The notes under the pieces were generated by a model. The model had not been told where the DNA came from and ran no database searches. It worked only from the letters and a program-made list of their open reading frames with translations. The position numbers and the translations under genes are program-made. DNA of 20,008 bases from positions 1 through 20,008 of the IMG/VR virus record IMGVR_UViG_3300024346_000675; one strand, given 5' to 3'. Source of the DNA: a virus. The stretch's first letter is position 1; every line of letters begins with the position of its first letter. This document shows, one piece after another, positions 4,667 to 19,890 of this stretch.

Positions 4667-4695
4667 TTGACTTTATTGCGTAGGTATGCTACACT
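4667..4695 (+). promoter_or_regulatory. sigma70-like promoter for uvdE
   Basis: TTGACT (4667-4672), 17-base spacer, TACACT (4690-4695). It lies in the gap between the divergent minus-strand gene and uvdE. The ATG at 4686 falls inside the spacer, so a transcript starting near 4702 cannot use it; this supports the TTG start at 4728. Confidence 0.6.
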
Positions 4696-4727
4696 ACATC
4701 TATTATTTATCACTTTGGACTATTACT

Positions 4728-5753
4728 TTGACAAATCAATCTATCAAACGCATCGGCTTTGCTTGTAAATGGGCAGAAATCAACAAAAAGGGTGAGATTG
4801 TTTCAGCCGAAGGTCTTAACACGGGTGGTACTACACAAGCATGGGCAAAGCGTAATAAGCGTGATGTTGTAGAAGAAAAGATTATGGATGTTGCTAAACG
4901 TAACATTCTTAATACACATGCATTGGTTAAGCGTGTAGCTACATTAGAACCTGAATTGCGTATGTTGCGCCTTACTAGTGATATGCTCAGTTTTTATACT
5001 ATGGATGGATACAAAGAATTTTGGCATTCAACTGATGTACAAAACAGTTTAGAACGATGGTTTGCGCCAATCGGTGAGACCGCACGTGCCAATGATGTCC
5101 GTCTTAGTTTTCACCCTGACCAATTTGTTGTTTTAGCAAGTGACCGTGAAGAAGTAGTAAATAAGAGTATAGAAGAATTTGAATATCATTGTGACATGGC
5201 TCGTTGGATGGGTTATGGTCAACAATTTCAAGATATCAAAATCAATGTACATATCTCTGGTAGAAAAGGTCCTCAGGGTATCAGAGATGTTTATGGTAGA
5301 CTCAGCCCCGAGGCACGAAACACACTAACACTAGAAAATGAAGAATACACACATGGATTACTTGACTGCTTATCGTTATCTGACCTCGTCCCTACGGTCA
5401 TGGACATTCACCATCATTGGATTAAAACGGGAGAATATATTCAATCGACTGATGATCGGGTTAAAATGGTTAGGGATAGCTGGCGCGGTGTCAGGCCTAC
5501 TTTACATTACTCCGTCAGCCGTGAAGATTGTCTTGTTGAACACTCCCGACACGAACGTCCCGCCCATGATGCGTTGATTGAAGCAGGATATAGTAAACAG
5601 AAACTTCGGGCACATAGTGATTACTATTGGAACGAAGCGGTGAATGATTGGGCATTGACATTTATTGATAATTTTGATATGATGTGTGAATCGAAGGCAA
5701 AGAATCTTGCCAGCTTTAAATTACTAGAAAGATACAAATGTTTGAAAAACTAA
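4728..5753 (+). CDS. uvdE: UV damage endonuclease UvdE
   Basis: UvdE nicks DNA 5' to UV photoproducts and starts excision repair; it has a TIM-barrel fold with a metal centre. Family motifs in order are IKRIGFACKW near the N-terminus, RLSFHPDQFV (metal-binding His), KINVHISGRKG, LTLENEE (metal Glu), VMDIHHHW (metal Asp and His), LHYSVSRED and DIMVEAK-like MMCESKAKN near the end. The open frame extends to an ATG at 4686, but that codon lies inside the promoter spacer. The TTG at 4728 gives MTNQSIKRIGFACKW, which matches family members whose conserved block starts almost at residue 1. The ribosome binding site is weak. The length of 341 residues is slightly longer than Thermus UvdE. The end overlaps the next gene by 16 bases. 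Confidence 0.85.
   Translation: MTNQSIKRIGFACKWAEINKKGEIVSAEGLNTGGTTQAWAKRNKRDVVEEKIMDVAKRNILNTHALVKRVATLEPELRMLRLTSDMLSFYTMDGYKEFWHSTDVQNSLERWFAPIGETARANDVRLSFHPDQFVVLASDREEVVNKSIEEFEYHCDMARWMGYGQQFQDIKINVHISGRKGPQGIRDVYGRLSPEARNTLTLENEEYTHGLLDCLSLSDLVPTVMDIHHHWIKTGEYIQSTDDRVKMVRDSWRGVRPTLHYSVSREDCLVEHSRHERPAHDALIEAGYSKQKLRAHSDYYWNEAVNDWALTFIDNFDMMCESKAKNLASFKLLERYKCLKN
5655..5683 (+). promoter_or_regulatory. candidate sigma70 promoter inside the 3' end of uvdE
   Basis: TTGACA (5655-5660), 17-base spacer, TATGAT (5678-5683), located 55 bases before the next start codon (5738). The -35 is perfect and the -10 is one base off consensus. The position, just upstream of a gene and within a coding tail, repeats the pattern of the promoters at 6725, 9478 and 12745. 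Confidence 0.5.
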
Positions 5754-12678: not shown

Positions 12679-12776
12679 ATCAATGGCAGCCCATGACTGA
12701 CGAAGATTGGGAATGGGTTAACTATGGTACATTACCAAAACCCGTTGACAAACAAGCTAAACCAATTTATAATTAA
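12675..12776 (+). CDS. 33-residue micro-gene
   Basis: Starts MNQWQPMTDEDWEWVNYG and ends KPIYN; very rich in Trp and acids. It begins in an ATGA overlap with the previous micro-gene. Its last 11 codons contain a perfect TTGACA-17-TATAAT promoter, so the tail does double duty or the reading frame is incidental. Confidence 0.48.
   Translation: MNQWQPMTDEDWEWVNYGTLPKPVDKQAKPIYN
12745..12773 (+). promoter_or_regulatory. consensus sigma70 promoter for the 12803 gene
   Basis: Perfect TTGACA (12745-12750), 17-base spacer, perfect TATAAT (12768-12773), embedded in the end of the 33-residue micro-gene. Start of transcription would be near 12780, about 23 bases before the ATG at 12803, with AAAGGAAA between. 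Confidence 0.75.
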
Positions 12777-12802
12777 CACACATACACTTTAAAGGAAATA
12801 TA

Positions 12803-13072
12803 ATGTCAGACTATACACCAAAACTACCCGAAGTTAAATTTAATAAAAATGGCTATGAACTGCGTACCGATATTTTAGCTATGGCTAAAGACATGGTACA
12901 ACAAGAATACTCAAGTAAATTTGCTGGTTGGGAACTAACAGCAAAACGTGATGAAAAAACGGGTCAACTTGTTTCCACAGTCACAATGCCCGAGTTTCCT
13001 GGTCTAGACAAAATCCTTGAAACTGCTGAAAAAATGTACGGTTTTGTTAATCAAAGTACTATAAAAAAATAA
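12803..13072 (+). CDS. conserved-looking phage protein, unknown function
   Basis: An 89-residue protein. The block NKNGYELRTDILAMAKDMVQ (15-34), then FAGWELTAKRDEKTGQLVST and MPEFPGLDKILETAEKMYGFVN, looks like a compact alpha/beta domain. I recall related sequences in T4-like phages without a firm function. It has its own consensus promoter and a strong AAAGGAAA binding site, and is followed at once by an intrinsic terminator, so it forms a one-gene unit that is probably highly expressed. Confidence 0.78.
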   Translation: MSDYTPKLPEVKFNKNGYELRTDILAMAKDMVQQEYSSKFAGWELTAKRDEKTGQLVSTVTMPEFPGLDKILETAEKMYGFVNQSTIKK

Positions 13073-13084
13073 TATAGTAGTAAT

Positions 13085-13112
13085 AAAAAGGCCCCTTAAA
13101 TGGGGCTTTTTT
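13085..13112 (+). terminator. Rho-independent terminator
   Basis: AAAAAGGCCCC, loop TTAAAT, GGGGCTTTTTT: a GC-rich stem of five pairs (plus a G-T and A-T extension) ending in six T. It begins 12 bases after the stop at 13072 and ends 4 bases before the next promoter. It is the clearest terminator in the window. Confidence 0.9.
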
Positions 13113-13116
13113 ACGG

Positions 13117-13145
13117 TTGACAATAAATCAGTTTGGCTATACAAT
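13117..13145 (+). promoter_or_regulatory. promoter cassette for the FG-GAP lipoprotein
   Basis: TTGACA (13117-13122), 17-base spacer starting ATAAATCA, TACAAT (13140-13145). Shares the extended TTGACAATAAATCA core and the TTTGGCTATA before the -10 with the promoter at 19862. It follows the terminator directly. Confidence 0.75.
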
Positions 13146-13176
13146 ACACATTGATTATATTCATTTAGGTGTTACT

Positions 13177-14367
13177 ATGCGATTGATGTTGTCTTTGTTA
13201 TTTACGATTACATTGCAAGGGTGCGGCGGTGGTTCACCTGCTCCTAATCCTTTACCCGTTCCTGTTGCTAAGTATGTAAAAGCACCAACCAAAGTATTCC
13301 CAACTTCATATGAGAACATGAAGAATACCGGGTATGGACAAATTAAGTTCCCAGCTACACCTATACCACTTGCATATAGTCTAGCTAACTTCAATAACAA
13401 AGGCAATCTGGACCTATTTACTGCAACAGTACAATATACAAAAGATAACTTAGTTAATGCCACATTACAGTTTTATGAACAAGATGGATTTGGTGGCTGG
13501 GATAAAATCAACTTGTTAACTAGTGATTCCGAAAGCTGTTTACATCCACGCAAAGGTGTAGTTGCTGATTTTAACCAAGATGGTAAGCCGGATATTTATG
13601 TTGCATGTACTGGATGGGATTATGAACCATATCCCGGTGAACATGGACTAACCATTCTTTCACAGGCAGATGGTAAATATAAATCAAAGAAAACAAACTT
13701 CTCTGGATATTTGCACAGTGCAACTGCCGCTGATTTAAATGGTGACGGATATCCCGATTTGATTGTAGGTGACTCTATGTGGGGACATAGAGCTAATCAA
13801 GGCAATTGGGGAATCAACATTCTGTTAAACAATAAAAATGGAGAATTCACTTTAGACAAATCTGGTAGATATTACTCAGAATCAAATGATGGGTTGTTAG
13901 CAAGTAAAACCAACACTTTGGATTATGGTCCATTTGCTGTTGAACTTATTGATGTAAATCTAGACGGAAAACTAGATTTACTAATTGGGTATCACTATGA
14001 AAATGGATTGGGTGCTACTCTAAATCTAAACAATGGAAATAACTATTTTTTAAATAAACCAAGTAATTTTATTCCATCAGATTTAGGGTATGGCTTTGCA
14101 TTGGATTTCACATTCGTTGTCGAAGGTGCAAATAGAATTCTGTACATAAACAAGACGGGCGATAGGTCTAAACCAACTGCAGGATTTTATGATGGTACTT
14201 ATGTACAAAAATATAATCTAACTACTAGTACCAGCACAGTATTAAGAAATACAAGTTTAGGTAGGGATTATGCTAGCCCCTGGACTGCTTGGTTTGTACC
14301 AAGTACAGATGGGAAGAGCATTACTCCTTACCACTTCACTGCACACAATGGTTACACATTGAAATAA
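13177..14367 (+). CDS. FG-GAP/VCBS repeat lipoprotein
   Basis: A 396-residue predicted lipoprotein. MRLMLSLLFTITLQGC is a short signal peptide ending in the lipobox LQGC (13-16), with Cys16 for lipidation, followed by a Gly/Pro-rich linker. The body carries calcium-binding FG-GAP-type loops: DFNQDGKPD (131-139), DLNGDGYPD (186-194), DVNLDGKLD (259-267) and a degenerate NFNNKGNLD (71-79). Spacing of about 55-75 residues is typical of a beta-propeller. It should sit on the outside of a membrane and bind a protein or glycan. In a phage, an envelope lipoprotein suggests changing the infected cell surface, for example blocking a second infection; this is inference. A TTG at 13117 is in frame but lies in the promoter; ATG 13177 is correct. 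Confidence 0.85.
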   Translation: MRLMLSLLFTITLQGCGGGSPAPNPLPVPVAKYVKAPTKVFPTSYENMKNTGYGQIKFPATPIPLAYSLANFNNKGNLDLFTATVQYTKDNLVNATLQFYEQDGFGGWDKINLLTSDSESCLHPRKGVVADFNQDGKPDIYVACTGWDYEPYPGEHGLTILSQADGKYKSKKTNFSGYLHSATAADLNGDGYPDLIVGDSMWGHRANQGNWGINILLNNKNGEFTLDKSGRYYSESNDGLLASKTNTLDYGPFAVELIDVNLDGKLDLLIGYHYENGLGATLNLNNGNNYFLNKPSNFIPSDLGYGFALDFTFVVEGANRILYINKTGDRSKPTAGFYDGTYVQKYNLTTSTSTVLRNTSLGRDYASPWTAWFVPSTDGKSITPYHFTAHNGYTLK

Positions 14368-14371
14368 AAGG

Positions 14372-14400
14372 TTGACAATAAATCATTTTGGGTCTATAAT
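14372..14400 (+). promoter_or_regulatory. promoter cassette for the 14429 gene
   Basis: TTGACA (14372-14377), 17-base spacer beginning ATAAATCATTTTGGG, TATAAT (14395-14400). It begins 4 bases after the lipoprotein stop. The leader ends in AAAGGAG before ATG 14429. Confidence 0.8.
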
Positions 14401-14428
14401 AGAGTCTTATTCAGTCAAAGGAGCTAGT

Positions 14429-14644
14429 ATGAACTTCACACAATATATGCTTGATTTCTATGGTCCAAATGGTATCTATCCAGAGGGCTTTACTAGTACC
14501 CAAATTGGTCTTGCCACCCAACTTTACAAAATCCGTCTCCCTGAGGGTACAGAATTCTATGGGGACAGTATAGACCGTGAACGTGTCCGTGATATCATCT
14601 TGGCCGCACGTGAAGAAACGGTTCCTGAATACAGCAAAATTTGA
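14429..14644 (+). CDS. 71-residue hypothetical protein
   Basis: Starts MNFTQYMLDFYGPNGIYPEG; a soluble alpha/beta protein with LATQLYKIRLPEGTEFYGDS and a helical IDRERVRDIILAAREET. AAAGGAG gives a strong binding site. The TGA stop (14642-14644) lies inside the TTGACA of the next promoter. No family recognised; a gene of its own behind a strong promoter suggests early expression. Confidence 0.75.
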   Translation: MNFTQYMLDFYGPNGIYPEGFTSTQIGLATQLYKIRLPEGTEFYGDSIDRERVRDIILAAREETVPEYSKI

Positions 14645-14669
14645 CATTAAATGGCACTTGTGCTATAAT
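14641..14669 (+). promoter_or_regulatory. promoter cassette for the methyltransferase operon
   Basis: TTGACA (14641-14646), 17-base spacer starting TTAAATGG, perfect TATAAT (14664-14669). The -35 overlaps the stop codon of the previous gene. A leader of about 25 bases contains TTAACTAAAGGA before ATG 14700, resembling the leader at 19862. Confidence 0.82.
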
Positions 14670-14699
14670 ACTTGTATTGACTTAACTAAAGGAACACAA

Positions 14700-15281
14700 A
14701 TGACTACTGCTTATTTTATCTCTGATGGTGTAGTATTACATCAATCAGTACGCAAGAATAATCGTACTGGTTATACTTATGCGGCATTAAGCCCTAGTTG
14801 GACACTGAATGCCGACAAGCCGTTTATTGCGGCGTGTGGTAATCCTACAGACCCGGAGGTAATGAGAAATGTGGTGGCACAACAACGCACAAGTTTGCAT
14901 TTGGGTTCATATGCTGATGCCCGAGAGGCAGCGTATGTTGTGGGTAAGTATCATCAGGATCCAATCGGTACTATTCAATATGTAAATGTACATAGTGCAT
15001 GGGACAACTTCCCTTCTGATTTATATAGTTTACCTGAAGGTTTAGCTTTTGATAAAGCAGTATCATTATTGAATGCTCGTTTGACAAAGACTAGTAAATC
15101 AACAAGCAAGAGAATTAAGAAAATTATTTCTATGGATAATCGCCCTGCAAGGGAATCATTCTTTAGTAAGTATTCACAAGATATTGCTAAACAACTACGT
15201 AGCAAATTTGGCTCTGATTTAGTTCGCCGTGAATTTGACCTGTTAACTATTAATGAATTTGAATTGAGATTTGGTTTATGA
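14700..15281 (+). CDS. hypothetical protein with possible AP2-like DNA-binding region
   Basis: A 193-residue protein starting MTTAYFISDGVVLHQSVRKN. Residues about 15-90 may be a divergent AP2-type DNA-binding domain: VRKNNRTGYTYAAL, then KPFIAAC, then SLHLGSYADAREAAYVVGKY, echoing the usual sheet and the LG-F-T-EEAA helix. The C-terminal half is basic (KTSKSTSKRIKKII) and ends in a helical block. It has a strong promoter and AAAGGA site and overlaps the 1288-residue restriction-modification-like gene by ATGA, so it could be a specificity or regulatory partner. An open frame runs back to 14577 through the promoter, which I reject. The AP2 assignment is tentative. Confidence 0.72.
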   Translation: MTTAYFISDGVVLHQSVRKNNRTGYTYAALSPSWTLNADKPFIAACGNPTDPEVMRNVVAQQRTSLHLGSYADAREAAYVVGKYHQDPIGTIQYVNVHSAWDNFPSDLYSLPEGLAFDKAVSLLNARLTKTSKSTSKRIKKIISMDNRPARESFFSKYSQDIAKQLRSKFGSDLVRREFDLLTINEFELRFGL

Positions 15282-18200
15282 ATACGTCTTTTGATAATGC
15301 AGTAAAAGCTACGTTTGCACCACGTGGAAGTGTGGCTACTTTGAATTCTGTATCATGGTATAAGGATCATCCGGAACAAATTCTTCACGGTGAATTAAAT
15401 TGTTTTGATGATGCATTGACACATAGTATAACTGTAAGAACATGGATTGTCTATTTTAGAGTTATTAAAAAGACAGACGAAAATGGTAATTATTATTACG
15501 AACTAATTAGTCTTGGGAGAGCCAAGGTTGGTAAGGGATTTTTTGAAGATGGGAATGAAACTAGAGATCCTAGTGCAGGAGGATCTGACGGCATTTTAGA
15601 AACTTGGGCGTCGGTTGGATGCGTAAGCGAGAATGCCGCAAATGCGCTTGAGGAATTAATTCACGATGAATTAAAAAAACAGGGCCGATGGGTTCCTCCT
15701 ACTACTAACAGTCAAGGAAAAAATTCAGGAACTGAATGGTTTAAAGAATGGCCTCGTAACAAAGAAGAAGCTATTACGGAGTTTTATGACATTATCAGTA
15801 AAGTAACTACTGCAAAAAATATTGGTCGTCAAAATTTTATTAAAAAAGCTAGATACTATCAAGTGTCCGGAGCAGATATCATTACAGATTTTCTACTTAA
15901 TGGTGGGAATATGCGTGATTTTTTCCTATTGTATAAACCTAGAGCAGGAAAAAACTCTACAGTATTACTAGGATTGGCTAGGTATGTAAAGACATTGCAA
16001 ACACAGGGCATCACAGAATGTATTATTGCTGATTTTGTTAGTCAGTGGCCTAGTGCATTTAATGGTCTTACCAAAGATATCAAAGATTATACTTTTGAAC
16101 AAGGTATCCATATTGGATATGTAGACACCGGTAAAACAGATTGGATGACTAAACTGCAAGAATTGCGAGAAACTTGCGATCTTGTATTACGGTTAGTATC
16201 TATGCAAAGTATCAATCAAGCATACGCCAATAAATGCGAAGATGATGATAATAATGAGTATGAAGGGCCCGTGGATGCGTTTGACCAAAACAAAGTTGTT
16301 TTATTGAAATTAATTCCGGCTCATTTGTGTATCATCGATGAATCAGACCATGGAATGCGTACTACAAAAAGTAAAACATTTTTAACACAATTTGGATATA
16401 CTAAATGTGTTTGGATGAGTGGTACAGATTTGTATGCATTAAAACACAAGATACGTCCGGGTAACCATGCTATCTACGATATCATTCAAGAAAGAATTGA
16501 TATTGATAATGGTATTTTTGGTGAAGAAGTACGTAGTAAATTACGTTTACATAAATCATCTATTAATGATTTACCGTTTTCTAATCTTACCAGTGACGAA
16601 TTAGATGCTAAAGGACTTAGTCGCAGACAACTTAACTTATGTGCTGTACTAAACGGCACCGGTGGAATTAAAACGGGAATTGATGGTCTATCAAGGTGGG
16701 ATAACGGAAAGGGATCAATTGTTGAATTTAAAAATCCGGCAGAAGTTATAGCGGCATTCAATCAATATTATAACTGGATTAATATGTCCGGCATGCCGGC
16801 GCCAATAGATCACGATCATATTTTTTGGACTATGCCTGGCAAAAAATCCGGCGCCGCTCTAAAAAATCTTATTTTACAAGGTAAGATTACCTCACAGCAC
16901 AAGCCATTACTAGCAAATGACTTCGGAAGTGCAGGCATTATTGAAGAGGATGTTAATAATGAAATGGCACGTTTAAAACGTACTATCTTTATTACAATTG
17001 GTAGAATGCTGAGAGGTTCTAAAGCTCCATGGAGTGCAGTAGTACGCTGGGACGATTATACAGATTTTAAAGTTGGGTTGCAACTTATGCTACGTGGTCA
17101 AAACACTGCCAAAGAGTGGTTTGATGTATATGATTGTAATCCATATCGTGCTAGTATAATGCGTTATAACATTATCCGATCAAGAGCTAATGGTAAAAAA
17201 ATAGATAGTCAAGGAAAAGAGTTATATAACTTAGTCCCTATTTATAGATTAAGTTCATTTGATGCCACAGAGGAATCTTGGGAAGAAACAATATCTGCTT
17301 ATCAAGAATGTTCCTTAAAAGAAGGTTATAAGAAAGAAAGTAACCTTGATGAAGCCGGTCTATTAAAAGCGGCTGAATTCTTAGCCGGAGTAGACAAATC
17401 AGAAGAAAGCAAAACACCTGAAAGAGATCCTAATGCAGGCAAGAACGGGCCAGCAGTGCCCAGGTCCCCTTCTACTACATCAATTAATATTGAAAAAGAT
17501 CCATTGGCAGATCTAAAAAAACAAGGAATGACAATTTCTAGTATGTTGCCTTTATTGGTGATTTTGTCAAAAGGACAATACACTGAAATTGATGACCTGA
17601 TTAATAACACTGATGATGAAGTTTTTGTAGATTGGTTGACTCATTGTGGGGTGAAATATAAAAACACTTCAATATTAAACGCTAAACATTTTATTATTGA
17701 AATGTTCCAAGCTGAAGAAATCAACAATCAATTGACCAATACCAGTAGAAAAATTATTAATAATGGTTTTGATTGGATTAATTGGAAAGAATTTAACAGA
17801 GAAGATAAGGGTGATGTGTCTACATCTGCTGAGGCTGTTTCATCTTTGTTGTCACATATTCCTGAGGAAGTTTGGGCAAAAGGTCCATACAGTTTTGATC
17901 CTAGTTGTGGTACAGGTGAGTTTTTAGTATACATAGCTAATAAATTATGTGAGTATGGATATGATCCGGCTAAATATATCTATTACGCAGATAGTAGCCC
18001 AATAAATATTAGGATTGCTAGTCTAAGACTAGGAATTGATAATGGATTCTGTTATACTATGAATAAAGATATTGAAGGACAAATTATGAATAACATTAAC
18101 AACATTGACCCATTAATTAAATTTGATTTGTATGCTACAAATCCACCGTTTCAAAAAGCCGATAAGAACGGAAGAGATGATGATAATTTATGGCCGTCGT

Positions 18201-19144
18201 TTTTAAAGTTGAGTGATAGATTAACTAATGTCGACGGATATAAAGTTTTTATTACGCCGGGTAGTTGGGCTAGTCTAGGAACAAATTCTGATAAGCCGGG
18301 AAGTTCTATTCGCAGAAAACATTTTGATAACAATCAAGTTGAAGTAGTAGATTTTACAATAGGTGACCATTTTGATGTAGGTTCTACCTTTACTGGATAC
18401 GTACTTAAAAATAGTAAATCAGATCCCAATTTAACCACTGAATTAATATTCAAAGATAAAGTAATTAATGGCAAGTTTTCTGATTATCCGTGCTTCCCAT
18501 TGAACTATTCTAATAGTGAATTTATCGAGATTGTTAAACAATTTAGATTAGCCAATCACTATGATATGATACAAGAAGATCCTTATCATACACCTCGAGG
18601 ATCAATGCCTAATAAAATTAAAGAAGGTGACTATTCTACGGAACAGTCTAAATCACATCCTTGTAGAGCATACCATACTAATGCACAGGATAAACTATAC
18701 ACTAAATATAAAAACAAATTTCATTCACAATGGAAGGCAGTCTTTAGCTATAGCGGATCTTGGAAGGTAGATATTACAAACGATTGTAGTTTAACAGATG
18801 CTAGTATGTGTGTCCTTACTAATAGTAAGGAAGAGGCCGAGAGCGTCCAAAGTGTATTACAAAGTACTCCTATTAAGTTTTTAATTGACAAAGTATTCCG
18901 TTGGGGCGGCTACTACAATGCATTGTTTATTAAATGGATACCATCTCTACCGATGAATAAAATTTACTCGGATGAAGATGTATATAATCTATTGTTTACG
19001 GAAGCACAGGCTAGCCTCATAAAAAATATTTTACAAGAAGACCTCAGGATTAAAGAAGATAAAGCCGCAAAAAAATTGGCAGTAAAAAAACCCACAAAAG
19101 CAAAGGGTGCTAGTAAAAAATCTAAAAAGGTAGCTTCCAAATGA
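15278..19144 (+). CDS. fused GIY-YIG nuclease-like / SF2 helicase / adenine DNA methyltransferase
   Basis: A 1288-residue multidomain protein that resembles a single-chain restriction-modification enzyme. Residues about 54-160 look like a GIY-YIG nuclease of the T5orf172 type: TWIVYFRVIKK, then ISLGRAKVGKGF, the catalytic-type Glu in ANALEELIHDEL (121-132), and GTEWFKEW. Residues about 185-600 are SF2 helicase-like: a Walker A variant FLLYKPRAGKNST (216-228), CIIDESDHG (351-359) as motif II, WMSGTD (379-384) as motif III and IGRMLRG (574-580) as motif VI. After a linker (700-745), residues about 848-1230 are an N6-adenine methyltransferase: FDPSCGTGEF (873-882, motif I) and ATNPPFQKAD (953-962, motif IV), with a C-terminal FRWGGYYNALFIKWIP block. 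The last 30 residues are a Lys-rich tail. Both neighbours overlap by ATGA. Confidence 0.85.
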   Translation: MNTSFDNAVKATFAPRGSVATLNSVSWYKDHPEQILHGELNCFDDALTHSITVRTWIVYFRVIKKTDENGNYYYELISLGRAKVGKGFFEDGNETRDPSAGGSDGILETWASVGCVSENAANALEELIHDELKKQGRWVPPTTNSQGKNSGTEWFKEWPRNKEEAITEFYDIISKVTTAKNIGRQNFIKKARYYQVSGADIITDFLLNGGNMRDFFLLYKPRAGKNSTVLLGLARYVKTLQTQGITECIIADFVSQWPSAFNGLTKDIKDYTFEQGIHIGYVDTGKTDWMTKLQELRETCDLVLRLVSMQSINQAYANKCEDDDNNEYEGPVDAFDQNKVVLLKLIPAHLCIIDESDHGMRTTKSKTFLTQFGYTKCVWMSGTDLYALKHKIRPGNHAIYDIIQERIDIDNGIFGEEVRSKLRLHKSSINDLPFSNLTSDELDAKGLSRRQLNLCAVLNGTGGIKTGIDGLSRWDNGKGSIVEFKNPAEVIAAFNQYYNWINMSGMPAPIDHDHIFWTMPGKKSGAALKNLILQGKITSQHKPLLANDFGSAGIIEEDVNNEMARLKRTIFITIGRMLRGSKAPWSAVVRWDDYTDFKVGLQLMLRGQNTAKEWFDVYDCNPYRASIMRYNIIRSRANGKKIDSQGKELYNLVPIYRLSSFDATEESWEETISAYQECSLKEGYKKESNLDEAGLLKAAEFLAGVDKSEESKTPERDPNAGKNGPAVPRSPSTTSINIEKDPLADLKKQGMTISSMLPLLVILSKGQYTEIDDLINNTDDEVFVDWLTHCGVKYKNTSILNAKHFIIEMFQAEEINNQLTNTSRKIINNGFDWINWKEFNREDKGDVSTSAEAVSSLLSHIPEEVWAKGPYSFDPSCGTGEFLVYIANKLCEYGYDPAKYIYYADSSPINIRIASLRLGIDNGFCYTMNKDIEGQIMNNINNIDPLIKFDLYATNPPFQKADKNGRDDDNLWPSFLKLSDRLTNVDGYKVFITPGSWASLGTNSDKPGSSIRRKHFDNNQVEVVDFTIGDHFDVGSTFTGYVLKNSKSDPNLTTELIFKDKVINGKFSDYPCFPLNYSNSEFIEIVKQFRLANHYDMIQEDPYHTPRGSMPNKIKEGDYSTEQSKSHPCRAYHTNAQDKLYTKYKNKFHSQWKAVFSYSGSWKVDITNDCSLTDASMCVLTNSKEEAESVQSVLQSTPIKFLIDKVFRWGGYYNALFIKWIPSLPMNKIYSDEDVYNLLFTEAQASLIKNILQEDLRIKEDKAAKKLAVKKPTKAKGASKKSKKVASK

Positions 19145-19638
19145 GTGAGGAGGAACTTGTTAAAATATACTTACATTTGTTTGATAGAGAATACATGTCA
19201 GGAGTAGAGCGTGACCAGTCTAGGGTTAAGTCTACTGGTGAAGTCTTTACACCCGGAGCAGCCGTATCACAAATGTTAGATCAAGTGCCGGAAGAATTGT
19301 TTAGTAACCCTGCAAAAAATGCATTAGATCCAGCTTGTGGTGATGGTAATTGGTTAGCAGAAGTATTGTGGCGTAAATTGGTTAACGGGATTGATTTTGA
19401 AGTAGCATTAAAAACAATCTATGGTGTAGACCTTATGAATGATAATGTAATTGAGTGCAAAAAAAGATTACAATGTGGGAGAACAGAATTAACAGATATT
19501 GTTAATTTAAATATAGTGTGTGCAGACTCATTAAGATATCATTATAGATTTGATGGGACAGATCCATATAGTACTCTTGCAGAAGTTAAAAAACTGAAGT
19601 ATGAACAACATTTTAATGAATTGTATCATATTACATAA
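19141..19638 (+). CDS. short methyltransferase-like protein with motif I only
   Basis: A 165-residue protein. After an N-terminal helix it has STGEVFTPGAAVSQMLDQVP (31-50), LDPACGDGNWL (62-72), the SAM-binding motif I, and IYGVDLMNDNVIECKKRL (93-110), the acidic-loop region, ending near ADSLRYHYRFDG. The NPPY/NPPF catalytic motif of adenine methyltransferases is missing and the protein stops just where it would be expected. Short proteins of this shape are known from T4-like phages. It is coupled by ATGA to the large fused enzyme, so it may be a SAM-binding partner or a diverged, inactive copy. The 3' side is followed at once by a promoter, so no continuation is seen. Confidence 0.8.
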   Translation: MSEEELVKIYLHLFDREYMSGVERDQSRVKSTGEVFTPGAAVSQMLDQVPEELFSNPAKNALDPACGDGNWLAEVLWRKLVNGIDFEVALKTIYGVDLMNDNVIECKKRLQCGRTELTDIVNLNIVCADSLRYHYRFDGTDPYSTLAEVKKLKYEQHFNELYHIT

Positions 19639-19641
19639 AAT

Positions 19642-19670
19642 TTGACAATAAATGGATATTCTGCTATAAT
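19642..19670 (+). promoter_or_regulatory. promoter cassette for the 19704 gene
   Basis: TTGACA (19642-19647), 17-base spacer starting ATAAATGG, perfect TATAAT (19665-19670). It begins 3 bases after the short methyltransferase stop. The leader has AGACAGTTAA and a CGGAGT binding site. Confidence 0.85.
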
Positions 19671-19703
19671 ATACTCTTAGACAGTTAAATAACGGAGTTA
19701 ATT

Positions 19704-19865
19704 ATGACTGAAAAAGTAGAACTACATTGCACACAAGATGACGACGGTACATGGATGGTTTGGTTCCCACATCCCCTCGGTGGTATGGATGTGTTAGAGA
19801 CTTTTGACAATGAAACCGACGCTAGGGCCTTCCACAAAGACCAAGTTGATAGTGCCGAAATTTGA
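19704..19865 (+). CDS. 53-residue acidic hypothetical protein
   Basis: Starts MTEKVELHCTQDDDGTWMVW and ends KDQVDSAEI. Acidic, with a beta-strand-rich first half and a helical end (NETDARAFHKDQ). CGGAG lies 9 bases before the ATG. The stop TGA (19863-19865) lies within the TTGACA of the following promoter, as at 14642. Small, separately promoted acidic proteins are typical of early phage genes that act on host functions, but no function can be read here. Confidence 0.68.
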   Translation: MTEKVELHCTQDDDGTWMVWFPHPLGGMDVLETFDNETDARAFHKDQVDSAEI

Positions 19866-19890
19866 CAATAAATCAATTTGGCTATATAAT
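19862..19890 (+). promoter_or_regulatory. promoter cassette for the last gene
   Basis: TTGACA (19862-19867), 17-base spacer starting ATAAATCAATTTGG, TATAAT (19885-19890). Leader AGACAGTTAACTAAAGGA precedes ATG 19923. The -35 overlaps the stop of the preceding gene. Confidence 0.85.

What the first reader, a model, noticed from the sequence alone, without database searches (positions are those of the whole stretch)
14641..19638. Phage operon with an all-in-one nuclease-helicase-methyltransferase and two coupled partners
Seen: one consensus promoter, then three genes joined by ATGA overlaps. The first may carry an AP2-like DNA-binding region, the second (1288 residues) shows GIY-YIG-like, SF2 helicase and N6-adenine methyltransferase motifs in that order, and the third has SAM-binding motif I alone. 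Known: single-chain restriction-modification enzymes (type ISP, type IIG and related) fuse nuclease, translocase and methyltransferase domains, usually with other nuclease folds and a C-terminal recognition domain. Inference: this may be a phage-borne system that attacks host or rival DNA, or marks the phage's own, with a GIY-YIG nuclease in place of the usual one and separately encoded partners.
Basis: partly seen in the sequence, partly recalled or inferred. Interest (0 to 1): 0.75.

Follow-up and report, generated by a model that had tools for sequence, protein, structure and literature searches.

The report
Phage restriction-like operon with split methyltransferase
A phage carries an operon for one giant protein that probably finds, moves along, methylates and cuts DNA, plus a small separate protein that looks like the cofactor-binding half of a DNA methyltransferase; relatives in dozens of environmental phages come fused or split, and one phage has five recognition proteins apparently served by one such half.

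Summary
The operon is real: a perfect sigma-70 promoter, then genes of 193, 1288 and 165 residues joined by ATGA overlaps. The 1288-residue protein is an SF2 motor followed by a complete M.TaqI/CamA-type N6-adenine methyltransferase with recognition domain. Its N-terminal GIY-YIG (T5orf172-type) nuclease is probable, not proven. No support was found for an AP2 domain in gene 1. Gene 3 is the SAM-binding half (motifs X, I, II, III, no catalytic motif IV) of the same kind of methyltransferase. It has homologs on 65 IMG/VR contigs, 2 bacterial contigs, cyanophages and Aeromonas phages, and nearly always directly follows an NPPY catalytic subunit, usually with a nuclease and helicase upstream, fused or split. 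Catalytic subunits have usually lost one or both SAM motifs while the separate subunit keeps them. In one phage five catalytic genes with near-identical starts and unrelated recognition domains share one intact SAM gene; four truncated SAM fossils lie between them. Best reading: an ATP-dependent, Type ISP-like restriction-modification system whose methyltransferase is split into a reusable SAM subunit and exchangeable catalytic/recognition subunits. Restriction and methylation are inferred, not shown.

The parts
14641..14669 (+). Perfect extended sigma-70 promoter of the operon
   Evidence: 12/12 match, 17-base spacer, TG before the second hexamer; one of five copies of a repeated promoter motif, 0.05 expected
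14688..14693 (+). Shine-Dalgarno-like AAAGGA before gene 1
   Evidence: read from the sequence
14700..15281 (+). Gene 1, 193 aa, function unknown; last ~65 residues conserved in the first gene of two related operons (L006, L057)
   Evidence: phmmer E 9e-10 and 2e-8; no AP2; no phage homolog
15278..19144 (+). Gene 2, 1288 aa: probable GIY-YIG nuclease, SF2 motor, N6-adenine methyltransferase with recognition domain
15632..15751 (+). Residues 119-158, second half of a T5orf172/GIY-YIG-like domain (whole domain perhaps residues ~55-160)
   Evidence: Pfam 16.9 bits, E 0.0095, below cut-off; hhalign E 6e-5 to related N-termini
15938..15955 (+). Walker A of the SF2 motor, PRAGKN (relatives PRFGKT)
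   Evidence: alignment A6, sequence
16337..16348 (+). SF2 motif II, DESD
   Evidence: alignment A6, E355 invariant
17897..17917 (+). Methyltransferase motif I, DPSCGTG (motif X missing in cis)
18140..18151 (+). Methyltransferase catalytic motif IV, NPPF
19141..19638 (+). Gene 3, 165 aa: SAM-binding half of an N6-adenine methyltransferase (phrog_4376-like), without motif IV
19240..19254 (+). Motif X, EVFTP, of gene 3
   Evidence: T37 invariant in 57 homologs
19327..19347 (+). Motif I, DPACGDG, of gene 3
   Evidence: G67 and G69 invariant in 57 homologs
19642..19670 (+). Perfect promoter of the next unit, which bounds the operon

Best explanation
The operon encodes an ATP-dependent restriction-modification system of a phage. 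The recognition domain and methyltransferase of the 1288-residue chain read a DNA site; if it is unmethylated, the SF2 motor moves along the DNA and the N-terminal nuclease cuts, as in Type ISP enzymes; otherwise an adenine is methylated. The 165-residue protein is a dedicated SAM-binding half-domain that joins the catalytic half of the methyltransferase in trans. It would let one SAM subunit serve several exchangeable catalytic/recognition proteins. Shown by sequence: the operon, the SF2 motor, the methyltransferase, gene 3 as a SAM half, the modular conservation. Inferred: nuclease activity, translocation, SAM binding in trans, and the target (unmodified host or competing phage DNA).
For: Domain order as in Type ISP (PMC4666363). 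65 viral loci carry gene 3 homologs; 50 of 57 distinct ones follow an NPPY protein directly. Nuclease plus helicase lie upstream in fused or split form; GIY-YIG or Mrr-type. The SAM subunit keeps motifs X and I, catalytic subunits mostly do not, and some begin at NPPY with no SAM half of their own. Natural fusion of both halves in Aeromonas phage Asswx_1. L031: five catalytic genes, 92-95% identical starts, 19-34% identical recognition regions, one intact SAM gene and four SAM fossils.
Against: No activity data. GIY-YIG is weak in the window itself. Walker A has N where relatives have T. The window's chain keeps its own motif I, so gene 3 may not be essential there. Several loci have the split methyltransferase without a nuclease or helicase nearby (L005, L008, L010).
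Confidence: 0.55

Rival explanations
1. A self-protection methyltransferase: the phage methylates its own DNA to escape host restriction, and the N-terminal nuclease/helicase part is inactive or only helps the enzyme move along DNA.
For: Phage methyltransferases of this kind are usually read as protective (PMC7824862); loci without a nuclease-helicase exist; several recognition proteins would widen protection; weak GIY-YIG and altered Walker A in the window.
Against: Nuclease and helicase modules stay linked to the methyltransferase in roughly 40 distinct loci, fused in ten, and the nuclease is replaced by another nuclease type rather than lost.
Confidence: 0.25
2. Gene 3 is not a SAM donor but a redundant or regulatory paralog of the methyltransferase N-terminal half, for instance an inhibitor or dimerisation partner; gene 2 works alone.
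For: Gene 2 keeps motif I (DPSCGTG) and AF2 builds a complete methyltransferase fold from it.
Against: Motif X is missing in gene 2; catalytic proteins of L005, L013, L030 and L073 have no SAM half at all yet sit next to the SAM gene; SAM-binding residues are invariant in the subunit.
Confidence: 0.2
3. A recombination or repair machine: SF2 helicase plus T5orf172 nuclease resolving branched DNA, with methylation as strand mark.
For: T5orf172 has been proposed as a recombination nuclease in jumbo phages (PMC7824862); UvsW is among the nearest solved helicases.
Against: HsdR is equally near; an Mrr-type nuclease stands in for GIY-YIG in sister loci; recognition domains diversify in tandem arrays.
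Confidence: 0.07

Closest known systems
Type ISP restriction-modification enzymes (LlaGI, LlaBIII)
   Same: One chain with nuclease, SF2 motor, adenine methyltransferase and recognition domain in that order (PMC4666363)
   Different: Probable GIY-YIG instead of Mrr nuclease; a separate SAM subunit; no sequence match to solved Type ISP chains among the listed hits
Circularly permuted adenine methylases of jumbo phages
   Same: Same halves, catalytic first, in one chain; Aeromonas phage Asswx_1 has it
   Different: Here the SAM half is a separate gene and the catalytic half is fused to motor and nuclease
CamA, M.BseCI, M.TaqI (gamma-class adenine methyltransferases)
   Same: Fold of gene 2 residues 801-1288; gene 3 matches the N-terminal SAM part of CamA
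   Different: Those are single chains without motor or nuclease
phrog_4376 / phrog_3689 phage families
   Same: Gene 3 and the catalytic domain match them
   Different: phrog_4376 is annotated as unknown function; fusion with motor and nuclease is not described there
EcoP1I, Type III system of phage P1
   Same: A restriction-modification system carried by a phage (PMC2962900, listing)
   Different: Mod/Res two-gene system without a separate SAM half; P1 is temperate (general knowledge)

Membership tests
Type ISP restriction-modification | Mrr-family (PD-(D/E)XK) nuclease at the N-terminus of the chain | tested here: not met
   Window matches T5orf172 weakly and no Mrr family; some relatives have a separate Mrr_cat_2 nuclease
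Type ISP restriction-modification | SF2 helicase-like ATPase in the chain | tested here: met
Type ISP restriction-modification | Adenine methyltransferase followed by a recognition domain | tested here: met
Type ISP restriction-modification | Single-subunit system | tested here: not met
   Gene 3 follows with ATGA overlap and is conserved next to the catalytic subunit
Type ISP restriction-modification | ATP-dependent cleavage after translocation | not testable with these tools
   needs biochemistry
GIY-YIG nuclease superfamily (gene 2 N-terminus) | Family match over the curated score | tested here: inconclusive
   16.9 of 20 bits, half domain; two relatives over the cut-off; hhalign E 6e-5
Gamma-class N6-adenine DNA methyltransferase (gene 2 C-terminus) | Motifs I and IV (NPPY/F) in a TaqI-like fold | tested here: met
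SAM half of a split methyltransferase (gene 3) | Motifs X and I present, motif IV absent, next to a catalytic half | tested here: met
SAM half of a split methyltransferase (gene 3) | Binds the catalytic half and supplies SAM | not testable with these tools
   needs complex prediction or biochemistry
AP2 DNA-binding proteins (gene 1) | PF00847 match | tested here: not met
   none at E<=10

The most novel reading that the evidence does not exclude
A phage family of restriction-modification systems in which the methyltransferase is permanently divided into one constant SAM-binding subunit and a swappable set of catalytic-plus-recognition subunits, with interchangeable nuclease modules; phages accumulate several specificities by tandem duplication (five in L031) while keeping a single SAM gene, giving combinatorial specificity used against host or rival phage DNA.
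Probability: 0.4. Interest if true: 0.8.

Novelty: new variant of a known kind. Interest (0 to 1): 0.64.

Why it matters
It suggests an identity for a widespread phage protein family annotated as unknown function (phrog_4376): the SAM half of a split DNA methyltransferase. It points to phage-carried ATP-dependent restriction systems with exchangeable nucleases and recognition subunits. If a single SAM subunit really powers several recognition proteins, adding a specificity would need only one new catalytic gene, a directly testable way for phages to build or dodge restriction.

Tried and rejected
AP2 domain in gene 1: no PF00847 match at E<=10, no phage homolog. Gene 2 as a direct search query in viral contigs or PDB sequences: nothing. 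Using all SAM halves including cyanophage ones as a scan query failed because no conserved stretch was long enough; a narrower alignment worked. AF2 of residues 1-800 gave pLDDT 51.6, so the nuclease could not be tested by structure. Profile comparison of relatives' N-terminal groups A10 and A11 with the GIY-YIG-positive group failed (A10 against A8; A11 only against A10 and the window), so I do not claim that every relative has a GIY-YIG domain. A comparison of the window helicase with alignment A6 was discarded because A6 contains the window sequence; it was repeated without it. The relatives-only helicase profile A13 found no helicase in PDB, so that link rests on A6, on Pfam ResIII/Helicase_C in relatives, on fold matches and on motifs. 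Literature searches for split adenine methyltransferases and for phage nuclease-helicase-methyltransferase systems found no description; only open-access papers are held, so this does not prove novelty.

Full report
What is there. The window is a whole 20,008-base IMG/VR virus record, probably a fragment, with no near match among 50,697 phage records. At 14641-14669 lies a perfect extended sigma-70 promoter, one of five copies of a TTGACAATAAAT...TATAAT motif that chance gives 0.05 times. It is followed by three genes: 14700-15281 (193 aa), 15278-19144 (1288 aa) and 19141-19638 (165 aa), each pair overlapping by ATGA. The next perfect promoter starts at 19642, so the operon is a bounded unit.

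Gene 2. Its C-terminal 488 residues are a gamma-class N6-adenine methyltransferase with recognition domain: Pfam N6_Mtase and Eco57I, PADLOC MTase_II over 825-1225 at 2.6e-16, an AF2 model with pLDDT 78.5 and pTM 0.77 that matches CamA, M.BseCI and M.TaqI with Foldseek E down to 4.5e-14, and profile homology over 355 columns to phage catalytic subunits (E 1.5e-38). Residues 181-698 contain an SF2 motor: profile homology to the helicases of related loci (E 1.4e-6), a joint profile that finds HsdR 3h1t and UvsW, and Foldseek matches to Snf2, DEAD-box and SauUSI motors from a low-confidence model. Its Walker A reads PRAGKN where relatives have PRFGKT, so motor activity is not assured. The N-terminal GIY-YIG call is probable only: T5orf172 at 16.9 bits, below the 20-bit cut-off, over residues 119-158; hhalign E 6e-5 to related N-termini, of which 7 of 11 match MUG113 and 6 of 11 T5orf172 at E<=0.1; in two of the related loci the T5orf172 match exceeds the curated cut-off.

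Gene 3. It matches the N-terminal SAM-binding part of CamA and, weakly, of M.BseCI, phrog_4376 of unknown function, and the N-terminal half of the catalytic subunits (E 1.1e-12; that profile includes the window's gene 2). It has motifs X (EVFTP), I (DPACGDG), II and III, and stops before motif IV. It is the half of the fold that binds SAM.

Relatives. A scan of viral contigs with a five-member alignment gave 65 loci; bacterial genomes gave two; cyanophages and Aeromonas phages carry it too. In 50 of 57 distinct cases the SAM subunit lies directly behind an NPPY-type protein, often overlapping it. Upstream, in about 40 distinct loci, come a nuclease-position gene and a helicase, arranged as one fused chain (window, L006, L011, L026, L027, L034, L046, L048, L049, L051), as a roughly 740-aa protein plus a 390-aa catalytic protein (for example L003, L024, L061), as separate 270-380 and 420-490 aa genes (for example L015, L018, L031), or as a ResIII helicase with an Mrr-type nuclease of about 190 aa (for example L035; L004, L017, L054 and L007 have nuclease genes in the same BLAST cluster). 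L006 has the window's exact three-gene order including a gene 1 homolog. Not every N-terminal group could be tied to GIY-YIG by profile.

Why gene 3 is read as the SAM half of a split enzyme. Across 57 aligned SAM subunits R28, E34, T37, G67, G69 and N102 never vary. Of 64 catalytic proteins only 4 keep both motif X and motif I in cis, 20 keep only I (the window is one), 6 only X, 25 neither, and 9 begin at or near NPPY (classification by pattern, so approximate). In Aeromonas phage Asswx_1 both halves are fused in one 384-aa chain, catalytic half first, and a circularly permuted adenine methylase has been noted in jumbo phages (PMC7824862). In L031 five catalytic genes share N-terminal halves of 92-95% aa identity but recognition regions of 19-34%. 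Behind each of the first four lies a fossil of the SAM gene's first codons (HARNREYMSG-), and only the last catalytic gene is followed by an intact SAM gene. The simplest reading is that one SAM subunit serves all five; a store of silent cassettes is the alternative, less likely because the copies are intact and promoter-like sequences precede them.

Mechanism. The arrangement works like a Type ISP enzyme (order nuclease, SF2 motor, methyltransferase, recognition domain; PMC4666363), with the SAM half detached. I do not file it as Type ISP, since the Mrr nuclease and single-subunit criteria were tested and not met. Cleavage, translocation, trans complementation and target are inference. Self-protective methylation without restriction remains the main rival.

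Verdict.

Noticed in passing
L031:3311-10349: Five tandem catalytic-half genes, each of the first four followed by a truncated fossil of the SAM gene start and then a promoter-like sequence; only the last has an intact SAM gene.
   Followed up: partly
L070:8180-11014 (and L069): A SAM half-domain sits at about residues 607-741 of a 944-aa protein that looks like a phage virion protein, with no NPPY partner seen next to it.
   Followed up: no
136-1648: QueD-like (PTPS) and QueE-like (radical SAM) genes: part of a 7-deazaguanine pathway, so this phage may also modify guanine in DNA or tRNA (QueE by sequence reading).
   Followed up: no
12745-19890: Perfect or near-perfect sigma-70 promoters of a shared TTGACAATAAAT...TATAAT form stand before many units in this window, far more than chance.
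   Followed up: partly
13168-14367: FG-GAP repeat protein with a possible lipoprotein start, unusual cargo for a phage.
   Followed up: no
4686-5753: UvdE-type UV endonuclease gene.
   Followed up: no
15938-15955: Walker A of gene 2 has N in place of the usual T/S (PRAGKN); a run of six A lies there (15949 on), in frame throughout.
   Followed up: partly
L073:7991-10453: A Micrococcales genome bin (a GTPase gene resembling HflX is next door, so not obviously phage) has a 378-aa gene of unknown family, a catalytic half starting at NPPF and a SAM half: possibly a plain bacterial restriction-modification system with the same split enzyme.
   Followed up: partly
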